A stretch of 64,000 nt of DNA from positions 248,001-312,000 of the forward strand of contig NZ_JAVALS010000002.1 of assembly GCF_030731045.1 (NCBI RefSeq). The letters are read 5' to 3'. Numbering within the stretch: the first letter of the stretch is position 1; every line of letters starts with the position of its first letter. Source of the DNA: Arthrobacter horti (GTDB taxonomy: Bacteria > Actinomycetota > Actinomycetes > Actinomycetales > Micrococcaceae). Under the pieces are notes generated by a model. That model was not told where the DNA came from. It saw only the letters and a list, made by a program, of their open reading frames with translations, and made no database searches. Below, one piece after another: positions 44,729 through 51,983 of this stretch. Made by a program: the position numbers and the translations under genes.

Positions 44729-45501
44729 GCGCCCACCCCCGCCGTGGCGGCGCCGCGGAGGAAGTCCCACGCTCCCAGCACATCCCATACCAGCTCCCGG
44801 GCGATCGCGCCAGGCTCGCGGGGGAGGAGCACGACGCCGGCCGGCTCACCTTCCGCGCTGGTCACGCCGTCCGCGTGGGGCACCGTCTTCACCTCGGCCA
44901 GGCGGTCGGTGAGGATCCAGAGGTGGGAACTCTGCGAGCTTGCCGTGCTGACGGCGGTCTGAACCGTGGCGCGGCCCGTGGCATCCAGCTCCGCCGCCAT
45001 CGCGGGAGAGACCGCGATGCGTTCCTCGGTGCCGAGGGCCGGCATCGCGGTGGACGTCAGCTCGGGCAGCTCCGGCATGGAGCGGGACACCACCTCCCAC
45101 AGCGCGTCCTGCGGGAACAGGGCCACGGTCATCCGCTCGGCGATGCCGTCCACGGCGATCTCCCCGCCGGCTTCCGCATGGACGCTCCGGGCGGTGGTGC
45201 GGGCCAGGCCGCGCCCCTCGAACAAGCCGATGTCGCAGTGCGAGGAGACGCCGCCCGTGCGCGTCACGACGCTCGCGGTGACCGGAGCTTCGGAGGCGCG
45301 GCGGATGGTGTCCCGCCAGTCCTCGGTGAGCGCGCCGTCGTCGTCGGTCAGGCCCAGTGCGCGGAGCTCCTGCTCCAGTGCTGGGAGGGAGTCCGCGGGC
45401 AGTCCGGCGGGGGCTTCCGAGGGCCCGCCGGCCTTCGACACGGCGAGGGCCCAGCTCAGGATGTTCATTTCGATGGATATTTCAGGCTGCAGGGCGGCCA
45501 T
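44725..45501 (-). CDS. Conserved hypothetical, possible ESX-type chaperone
   Basis: 258 residues with no signal peptide. Segments such as ALTEDWRDTIRRASEAPVTA and GGVSSHCDIGLFEGRGLA then a C-terminal PGAIARELVWDVLGAW recall the long alpha-beta fold of EspG-type chaperones that keep ESX substrates soluble. The similarity is weak. The stop overlaps the ATG of the WXG100-like hydrolase gene by 3 bases, so the two proteins are translationally coupled, which fits a chaperone-substrate pair. Otherwise unknown. Confidence 0.7.
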   Translation of the reverse strand: MAALQPEISIEMNILSWALAVSKAGGPSEAPAGLPADSLPALEQELRALGLTDDDGALTEDWRDTIRRASEAPVTASVVTRTGGVSSHCDIGLFEGRGLARTTARSVHAEAGGEIAVDGIAERMTVALFPQDALWEVVSRSMPELPELTSTAMPALGTEERIAVSPAMAAELDATGRATVQTAVSTASSQSSHLWILTDRLAEVKTVPHADGVTSAEGEPAGVVLLPREPGAIARELVWDVLGAWDFLRGAATAGVGA

Positions 45502-45571
45502 GGTGTCTCCGTCAGGGGTGCGAGGTGGTGGTGAGTGCTGGCCTCACCGTATCCCGGGGCCGTCTCCGCCG

Positions 45572-45593
45572 CCATGGGCAGGGGTGCCCATGG
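45572..45593. repeat. Perfect hairpin in divergent intergenic region
   Basis: CCATGGGCA and TGCCCATGG form a 9-bp stem around a GGGG loop, between divergent genes and 5' of the candidate structured leader. Could be a leader element or an operator. Confidence 0.4.
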
Positions 45594-45598
45594 GGATG

Positions 45599-45702
45599 AC
45601 CGTGAAACAATGGTGGGCGGCGAAACCGAGACGGTCGCCGAGCTAGTGCTAATACAGCGGGGCTTCACGGCCCTGGCGAACCACTATTGGAATGAGATCC
45701 CC
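45599..45702 (+). promoter_or_regulatory. Candidate structured 5' leader (riboswitch-like) of queuosine-precursor transporter
   Basis: A 9-bp closing helix pairs CAATGGTGG (45608-45616) with CCACTATTG (45681-45689), with one G-U. Inside are GGCG/CGCC (45619-45639) and GGGC-TTCACG-GCCC (45660-45673) hairpins. The loop TTCACG and the next G can pair with CCGTGAA (45599-45605) upstream of the closing helix, a seven-base pseudoknot candidate. The ribosome site GGAATGAG lies just after the closing helix. An alternative pairing of GACCGT (45597) with ACGGTC (45631) could compete. This design fits translational control by a queuosine-precursor sensor. I do not recognise a known class. Confidence 0.5.
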
Positions 45703-46401
45703 ATGAGCGCGAACGCGCAGGCCACTGTGGCCACGGGCAAGGCCCGGTACGCATCCATCGGCAGCCCCTTCTTCGGCATCCTGCTCGCGATCATGGCGGT
45801 GATCGTCATCCTGTCCAATATCGGCGCGTCCAAGGGCGTGGTCTTCGGCCCGATCGTCACCGATGGCGGCTTCTTCCTCTTCCCGCTCGCCTACGTCCTG
45901 GGCGATGTGATCTCCGAGGTCTACGGCTTCAAGGTGGCCCGCAAGGCCATCATCACCACCTTCGTCATCTCGGTCTTCGCCTCCCTGAGCTACTGGGTGA
46001 TCATCGCTCTGCCGGGCTTCGACGACGACTACGGCCGTGCCAAGCAGGCCGCACTGGAAGGCGCGCTCGGCCCGGTCCCGCAGATCGTCCTGGCCTCCCT
46101 GGTGGCCTTCCTGGCCGGCCAGACCATCAACTCCTGGATCCTGGTGAGGATGAAGGCGCGCTCCGGGGAGAAGACCCTGTGGGCGCGCCTGATGGGCTCT
46201 TCCGGCGTGGGCGAGTTCGTGGACACGCTCATCTTCTGCTCCATCGCCGCGCCGGTCATCGGCATCACGGACGCACCCACCTTCATCAACTACGTACTGG
46301 TGGGCTTCCTCTACAAGACCCTGGTGGAGTACGCATTGATTCCGGTCACGGCCCTGGTCATCCGCGCGATCAAGCGTCGCGAACCGAGCTACGGCGCCTG
46401 A
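45703..46401 (+). CDS. Queuosine precursor transporter (YhhQ/VUT family)
   Basis: 232 residues with about six transmembrane helices. FFLFPLAYVLGDVISEVYGF is the family signature and the C-terminal region has FVDTLIFCSIAAPVIG. YhhQ-family (COG1738) proteins import preQ0, preQ1 or queuine for the tRNA modification queuosine. No preQ1 synthesis genes are present, while tgt lies at 49211-50491, so salvage is likely. The start was placed at the ATG after GGAATGAG; an in-frame ATG at 45610 lies inside the candidate structured leader and is disfavoured. Confidence 0.9.
   Translation: MSANAQATVATGKARYASIGSPFFGILLAIMAVIVILSNIGASKGVVFGPIVTDGGFFLFPLAYVLGDVISEVYGFKVARKAIITTFVISVFASLSYWVIIALPGFDDDYGRAKQAALEGALGPVPQIVLASLVAFLAGQTINSWILVRMKARSGEKTLWARLMGSSGVGEFVDTLIFCSIAAPVIGITDAPTFINYVLVGFLYKTLVEYALIPVTALVIRAIKRREPSYGA

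Positions 46402-49210: not shown

Positions 49211-51983
<2,773 letters not shown>

What the first reader, a model, noticed from the sequence alone, without database searches (positions are those of the whole stretch)
45599..45702. Candidate unassigned riboswitch upstream of a queuosine-precursor transporter
A 9-bp closing helix, two internal hairpins, and a hairpin loop able to pair with bases 5' of the closing helix form a compact pseudoknotted fold ending directly at the ribosome site. A competing pairing exists. The location before a YhhQ-family gene fits sensing of preQ1, preQ0 or queuine, but the sequence does not resemble preQ1-I or preQ1-II as I know them.
Basis: partly seen in the sequence, partly recalled or inferred. 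Interest (0 to 1): 0.65.

Follow-up and report, generated by a model that had tools for sequence, protein, structure and literature searches.

The report
Small RNA switch before queuine transporter
A short, strongly conserved RNA element sits just before the start of a transporter gene for a tRNA-modification precursor in Arthrobacter-type bacteria; it looks like a new kind of RNA switch, probably sensing the base queuine, although binding has not been tested.

Summary
The conserved core is smaller (45645-45685): AGUG-HUAAUACA-[variable, covarying hairpin]-NAAC-CACU. It precedes yhhQ in 79 of the 80 best loci found by protein similarity, and all 55 genuine pattern hits among 197 Micrococcaceae genomes lie before yhhQ. 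It is absent from 54 yhhQ leaders of five other families. No Rfam family matches. One spanning leader peptide is rejected; an N-terminal extension is excluded in 42 of 79 loci. All 32 genomes checked have TGT, none has QueA, none has QueC above cut-off, so the salvaged base is probably queuine, though preQ1 is not excluded. Best reading: a new minimal translational riboswitch class, probably sensing queuine. That it is a conserved RNA is well supported; ligand, binding and direction are inferred. A second conserved hairpin precedes yhhQ in other lineages.

The parts
45603..45611 (+). Predicted extended -10 promoter element TGAAACAAT; predicted transcription start about 45617-45619
   Evidence: TGnRAnAAT lies within 60 nt upstream of the core in 94 of 133 distinct leaders (37 at 6-11 nt, 57 at 26-45 nt); 9 of 133 in the next 60 nt up, 0 of 133 in two windows further up, 0 of 133 on the reverse strand; 21 of the other 39 have TGGCAGAAT. 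Start site inferred.
45618..45640 (+). P0, hairpin at the predicted 5' end of the transcript; many relatives have a different hairpin here, or none
   Evidence: Fold from the predicted start; in 57 relatives with a long leader the segment folds with mean z -1.89 (43 of 57 below -1).
45645..45685 (+). Conserved core AGUG-CUAAUACA-hairpin-GAAC-CACU, the regulatory RNA element
   Evidence: Covariance model R1, 54.7 bits (the window was one of the 44 training sequences); 131 distinct cores tabulated.
45645..45648 (+). P1 5' strand AGUG
   Evidence: Complementary to CACU at 45682-45685; nearly invariant, so covariation hardly tests it.
45649..45656 (+). Internal loop, 5' strand CUAAUACA
   Evidence: Nearly invariant in 131 cores (partly forced by the search pattern); relaxed forms in L275, L277, L289.
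45657..45677 (+). P2, apical hairpin of variable length and sequence
   Evidence: Covariation exceeds all 500 shuffles by score and by changed cells.
45678..45681 (+). Internal loop, 3' strand GAAC
   Evidence: NAAC in 131 cores (AAC forced by the pattern); CACC in place of AACC in L288.
45682..45685 (+). P1 3' strand CACU
   Evidence: As P1 5' strand; in the 8 cores where the last U is C, all in one genus, 7 have a complementary outer extension.
45689..45697 (+). Ribosome-binding region GGAATGAGA
   Evidence: Read from the sequence beside GAAYGGA of relatives.
45703..46401 (+). yhhQ-type queuosine-precursor transporter gene
   Evidence: PF02592 E 4.3e-47; TIGR00697 E 4.9e-27.
49220..50371 (-). 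tgt, tRNA-guanine transglycosylase, 3.5 kb from the core
   Evidence: PF01702 E 1.2e-124; TIGR00430 E 3.6e-122.

Best explanation
The leader of this yhhQ gene carries a small structured RNA: a 4-bp helix AGUG/CACU, an asymmetric internal loop of conserved bases (HUAAUACA opposite NAAC) and a variable apical hairpin. It most likely works as a translation-level riboswitch. When the salvaged base, most likely queuine, is plentiful it binds the internal loop and stabilises the weak closing helix just upstream of the Shine-Dalgarno sequence; ribosome loading falls and less importer is made. Shown: conservation, covariation of the apical stem, position downstream of a promoter-like element and at near-fixed distance from the ribosome site in most relatives, tight association with yhhQ, and genomes with TGT but no QueA. 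Inferred: ligand binding, ligand identity, OFF direction, helix stabilisation.
For: 79 of the 80 loci kept by YhhQ protein similarity carry the core, 76 strictly and 3 as a variant. 55 of 58 pattern-positive genomes among 197 Micrococcaceae are genuine by their 5' half, and in 55 of 55 a PF02592 gene follows (47 by tblastn; the other 8 from positions). Of 40 further yhhQ leaders without a genuine pattern hit (picked from 114 for spread over genera) 17 have the 5' half and 3 a relaxed form. Apical-stem covariation score 0.169 vs 0.093 shuffled on a MAFFT alignment of 44 and 0.189 vs 0.090 on a model-fitted alignment of 69 distinct, 0 of 500 shuffles in both. Promoter-like element upstream at two preferred spacings. 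AACCAC ends 7-8 nt before GGA in 65 of 65 loci with a GGA in the spacer (79 examined). P1 is in the minimum-energy fold but not in the centroid of the predicted transcript, as expected of a ligand-stabilised helix. TGT in 32 of 32 genomes, QueA in 0 of 32 (controls 9 of 14), QueC above cut-off in 0 of 32 (controls 11 of 14). In the 20 element-bearing genomes chosen for that set tgt lies within 15 kb of the core on the same contig. [quoted passage not shown]
Against: No binding or expression data. P1 hardly varies, so covariation does not test it; one P2 pair (16-53) is unpaired in 20 of 44 and its equivalent in 34 of 69; the plain count of pairs with two-sided change is reached by 99 of 500 shuffles and the count of pair types by 200 of 500. 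RNAalifold gives P1 and P2 but with only -0.77 kcal/mol. The element was seen only in Micrococcaceae: own genome alone in 396 phylum genomes, where the pattern also missed the one other Micrococcaceae genome G009, whose hairpin is too long for it; and 20 of 40 further Micrococcaceae yhhQ leaders lack it. A single target gene leaves protein control open. Lack of QueA does not prove queuine use: Bartonella lacks it yet uses preQ1 (PMC11570991, passages), and for Bifidobacterium breve, an actinobacterium, PMC11130926 suggests preQ1 is transported and inserted (passages). The TGT pocket reads GGALEK(E/A)NLG in 20 of 20 loci read, neither the preQ1-type GGLAVG nor the q-type GG[LS][AS]G of PMC11570991. 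The window genome is 93.85% complete.
Confidence: 0.48

Rival explanations
1. The core is a binding site for an RNA-binding protein (a regulator, or TGT or another Q-pathway protein) that controls yhhQ translation; no small molecule binds the RNA directly.
For: A short hairpin with a conserved internal loop beside the ribosome site, tied to one gene, suits a protein site. tgt lies close by.
Against: No candidate protein was identified or searched for; conservation of both internal-loop strands is what small aptamers show (inference). Weak: three TGT-bearing genomes without yhhQ (G006, G031, G057) gave no pattern hit.
Confidence: 0.22
2. A new riboswitch class, but for preQ1 or preQ0, with preQ1 as the final tRNA modification in these bacteria.
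For: YhhQ of E. coli moves preQ0/preQ1 (PMC5372724, title and abstract in listings). Bartonella and probably B. breve use preQ1 without QueA (PMC11570991, PMC11130926, passages). The TGT pocket lacks the reported queuine signature.
Against: QueA in 0 of 32 and QueC above cut-off in 0 of 32 genomes. The TGT pocket also lacks the preQ1-type GGLAVG.
Confidence: 0.17
3. The region is coding: a leader peptide (GUG CUA AUA CAG ... AAC CAC UAY, with codons read by Q-modified tRNAs), or an N-terminal extension of YhhQ.
For: In the window, and in some relatives, the frame is open from GUG through the core into yhhQ; frame 0 is the commonest spacing, 64 of 129.
Against: Spacing between the two halves is out of frame in 65 of 129 distinct leaders, and some in-frame ones have stops before AAC. 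The yhhQ frame is closed by a stop downstream of the core's GUG in 42 of 79 loci. The apical stem covaries.
Confidence: 0.03
4. The two conserved halves are a DNA operator, not RNA.
For: The halves are partly complementary and close to a promoter.
Against: They lie downstream of the predicted start, their separation varies over tens of bases, and the stem between them covaries.
Confidence: 0.05

Closest known systems
preQ1-I riboswitches (type III controls yhhQ in E. coli; PMC11625349 passages)
   Same: Small leader RNA before a Q-precursor transporter gene; control of the ribosome site is likely.
   Different: No covariance-model match; two-helix plan with an internal loop instead of a pseudoknot, as far as conservation shows; hosts have TGT but no QueA.
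preQ1-II riboswitches
   Same: A conserved strand, a hairpin and a second conserved strand ending near the Shine-Dalgarno sequence (resemblance recalled, not tested).
   Different: No covariance-model match; no upstream hairpin loop pairing with the ribosome site is conserved; the upstream P0 is variable or absent.
preQ1-III riboswitches
   Same: Target pathway.
   Different: No covariance-model match; much smaller; no conserved pseudoknot seen.

Membership tests
preQ1-I / preQ1-II / preQ1-III riboswitches | Match to the Rfam covariance model | tested here: not met
   No family at gathering score in the window; only an unrelated sRNA (Bcj14, E 1.4) at E up to 10 for 45500-45760; no preQ1 model among 7 chance-level matches in 20 relatives.
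preQ1-I / preQ1-II / preQ1-III riboswitches | Conserved pseudoknot | tested here: inconclusive
preQ1-I / preQ1-II / preQ1-III riboswitches | Binds preQ1 | not testable with these tools
   Needs a binding assay.
Riboswitch (general) | Conserved structured RNA in the leader of a gene of one pathway | tested here: met
   Core before yhhQ in 79 of 80 loci and 55 of 55 genuine pattern hits; stem covariation.
Riboswitch (general) | Direct ligand binding that changes expression | not testable with these tools
   No experiment available.
Leader peptide / attenuator | Shared reading frame through the conserved codons | tested here: not met
   64, 36 and 29 of 129 leaders in the three frames.
N-terminal extension of YhhQ | yhhQ frame open through the core in homologues | tested here: not met
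   Closed by a stop downstream of the core's GUG in 42 of 79 loci, open in 37.

The most novel reading that the evidence does not exclude
The element is the first natural riboswitch class for queuine itself: a minimal two-helix aptamer in bacteria that import finished queuine and insert it with TGT alone. It is part of a layered control of yhhQ in which a second conserved hairpin at the predicted 5' end (loop GG(U)(G)GCAG), shared with another actinobacterial family, adds another input.
Probability: 0.37. Interest if true: 0.85.

Novelty: new variant of a known kind. Interest (0 to 1): 0.68.

Why it matters
The three riboswitch classes described for this pathway respond to preQ1 (PMC11625349, abstract in listing and passages). 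Other bacteria and eukaryotes salvage queuine instead (PMC11130926, passages); how cells sense queuine is open as far as I recall. A roughly 45-nt queuine aptamer would make queuine supply measurable in living cells, help assign substrates of YhhQ transporters, and give a genetic handle on Q salvage in soil actinobacteria. Even if the sensor is a protein, the element is a new RNA family with one clear target gene and a cheap decisive test.

Tried and rejected
A leader peptide with Q codons: attractive in the window because the frame is open, rejected on frame statistics. N-terminal extension. A covariance-model search over 394 class genomes hit 13; 3 are Micrococcaceae yhhQ leaders, the other 10 (20.4 to 25.8 bits) show no UAAUACA in the stretches printed and look like chance; candidates were strictly pre-filtered, so weak members could be missed. 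The DNA search over 197 family genomes at E up to 10 matched all 197, mostly by short chance matches, but pointed to the conserved part. In the pattern search 3 of 58 hits (GTGGTAGTACA in G009, G143, G186) are chance; the backward-pattern control hit 20 of 197 genomes. Outward extension of P1 by one to four pairs is not conserved. One of 80 loci, L011 (Sinomonas), lacks the core. In five other families 0 of 54 yhhQ leaders have the core; L151 has GTGCTAATATA without the 3' half, perhaps its -10. The TGT pocket does not settle the ligand. QueF, QueG and QueH were not searched. Literature: listings (CC-licensed PMC only) showed no description of this element; word searches inside PMC11109978, PMC8632094, PMC6429828 and PMC2864571 found no yhhQ or queuosine. 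The 2019 queuine-salvage paper and the 2017 list of 224 motifs are not held and no supplements were read, so a description there is not excluded.

Full report
WHAT WAS CHECKED. The flagged interval 45599-45702 lies before a gene (45703-46401) that is a YhhQ-type transporter: PF02592 at E 4.3e-47 and TIGR00697, queuosine precursor transporter, at E 4.9e-27.

WHY THE DRAWN FOLD IS PROBABLY WRONG. In relatives a promoter-like extended -10, TGnRAnAAT, stands within 60 nt before the conserved core in 94 of 133 distinct leaders (37 at 6-11 nt, 57 at 26-45 nt). The next 60 nt upstream have it in 9 of 133, two windows further up in 0 of 133, the reverse strand in 0 of 133; 21 of the 39 leaders without it have TGGCAGAAT. 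Shuffles reach that percentage in 193 of 500; two pairs change on both sides, which 115 of 500 shuffles reach. Folding from the predicted start gives P0, a short P1 and the apical hairpin with an ordinary z of -0.76; the z of -2.51 for the larger region included promoter-side inverted repeats.

WHAT IS REALLY THERE. A scan for relatives of the protein alone kept the best 80 of 184 matches. Of these, 79 carry the same core: 76 strictly and 3 as an ACAACC/GGCCAACC variant; L011 lacks it. These are close relatives (76-85% identity of the best segment). The core is AGUG-HUAAUACA-RC[hairpin]GY-N-AAC-CACU. In 131 distinct cores the loop strands barely vary (partly forced by the search pattern), while the hairpin varies widely in length and sequence. 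On a MAFFT alignment of 44 sequences with a structure I drew from it, 28 cells are changed on both sides against 13.0 in shuffles and the covariation score is 0.169 against 0.093, 0 of 500 shuffles reaching either; the count of pair types is reached by 200 of 500. On a model-fitted alignment of 69 distinct sequences the figures are 54 against 21.1 and 0.189 against 0.090, again 0 of 500; the plain number of pairs with two-sided change is reached by 99 of 500. P1 is nearly invariant, hence not testable that way. Two small signs favour it: in the 8 cores, all of one genus, where the outer U became C, 7 show an outer GUG-A-GUG/CAC-C(A/G)C extension, and L277 has G for A opposite the U.

DISTRIBUTION. 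Pattern hits occur in 58 of 197 Micrococcaceae genomes; 3 are chance by their 5' half, leaving 55 in 11 of 32 genera; the backward-pattern control hit 20 of 197. PF02592 occurs in 169 of the 197. In 55 of 55 genuine hits a yhhQ gene follows: 47 by tblastn, 8 from positions. From the 114 yhhQ-bearing genomes without a genuine pattern hit I read 40 leaders, picked for spread over genera: 17 have the 5' half (mostly with longer hairpins), 3 a relaxed form, 20 neither. This adds five genera, one of them (L277) by a relaxed form only. In five other families of the order 0 of 54 yhhQ leaders have the core. In 396 genomes of the phylum only the window's own matched; G009, the one other Micrococcaceae genome in the list, carries the element with a hairpin too long for the pattern, which shows the limit of that search.

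POSITION AND MECHANISM. AACCAC ends 7 or 8 nt before GGA in 65 of 65 loci with a GGA between core and the assumed start (79 examined); the window has a related GGAATGAGA. P1 is in the minimum-energy fold but not in the centroid fold of the window transcript. I infer translation control by stabilising P1 beside the ribosome site; OFF is assumed because the target is an importer.

LIGAND. TGT is in 32 of 32 Micrococcaceae genomes tested, QueA in 0 of 32 (controls 9 of 14), QueC above cut-off in 0 of 32 with one match below it (controls 11 of 14). In the 20 element-bearing genomes chosen for this set tgt lies within 15 kb of the core on the same contig; in the window 3.5 kb. Without QueA neither preQ0 nor preQ1 can become queuosine by the known route, so queuine import is the simplest reading; PMC11130926 says the same of most gut Actinomycetota (passages). 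Against it: Bartonella lacks QueA yet uses preQ1 (PMC11570991, passages), PMC11130926 suggests the same for the actinobacterium Bifidobacterium breve, and the TGT pocket here, GGALEK(E/A)NLG in the 20 loci read, fits neither signature given in PMC11570991. QueF, QueG and QueH were not searched.

RIVALS. A leader peptide was attractive, since AAC CAC UAY would put Asn, His and Tyr codons, read by Q-tRNAs, in a row (recalled). But the spacing is in frame in only 64 of 129 leaders (36 and 29 in the other frames) and some of those have stops before AAC. The yhhQ frame is closed by a stop downstream of the core's GUG in 42 of 79 loci and open in 37. A DNA operator is unlikely given the varying separation and the covarying stem. 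A protein-binding site remains the main rival.

KNOWN FAMILIES. Rfam 15: no match at gathering score in the window; at E up to 10 only an unrelated sRNA for the region, and 7 chance-level matches in 20 relatives, none to a preQ1 model. It is therefore not filed as preQ1-I, -II or -III, though it may work like them. Searches of CC-licensed papers listed no description; two likely sources were not readable.

A SECOND ELEMENT. At the predicted 5' end of yhhQ transcripts in other lineages stands a hairpin with loop GG(U)(G)GCAG(R): 39 distinct hairpins in 45 of 76 loci examined. The first 36 of those loci were picked because the hairpin had been seen, candidates had to show at least 5 pairs, and at least one (L276) is probably chance. 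A looser scan with a reversed-loop control gave 67 of 116 leaders against 25 of 116, and some of its hits, such as the 13 in family f6, may be coding coincidence. It occurs with the core in some genera and without it in others, including another family, and was not seen in the window's genus (0 of 4 leaders).

VERDICT. Conserved structured leader RNA: about 0.93. Metabolite riboswitch of any kind: about 0.65. Queuine and the mechanism as stated: 0.37 to 0.48.

Noticed in passing
yhhQ leaders of other genomes: L189, L226, L229, L165, L170, L187, L268: A second conserved element: a hairpin at the predicted 5' end of yhhQ transcripts with loop GG(U)(G)GCAG(R) and varied stem pairs, in many Micrococcaceae and in another family (f49); no Rfam match in the 20 loci searched. 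39 distinct examples in 45 of 76 loci; scan 67 of 116 leaders vs 25 of 116 for a reversed-loop control.
   Followed up: partly
Upstream of yhhQ promoters, e.g. L183, L176, L179, L057: Palindrome GAACNNGTTC within 200 nt upstream of the core in 54 of 133 leaders (0 at +300 to +500; GTTCNNGAAC control 4): probably a transcription-factor site. The window has none there.
   Followed up: partly
window 49220-50371 (-); L112, L247-L265: TGT has GGALEK(E/A)NLG where preQ1-type enzymes have GGLAVG, in 20 of 20 loci read, with a 3-residue gap against the solved TGT 4gcx. Possibly a separate substrate class.
   Followed up: partly
L278 and L284: Two yhhQ leaders keep the 3' half (GAACCAC / AAACCAC) but not the 5' half of the core, as if it had been lost.
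   Followed up: no
L275, L277, L289, L288: Relaxed cores: UAAUAUA, UGAUGCA and UAAUAAA in the 5' strand, and CACC for AACC in the 3' strand; natural mutants useful for a binding study.
   Followed up: no
window 45589-45597 and 45697-45705: Inverted repeat CATGGGGAT / ATCCCCATG brackets the promoter and the yhhQ start codon; it pairs in the fold of the larger region.
   Followed up: no
G006, G031, G057: Genomes with TGT but no PF02592 match: another importer of queuine or a precursor may exist there.
   Followed up: no
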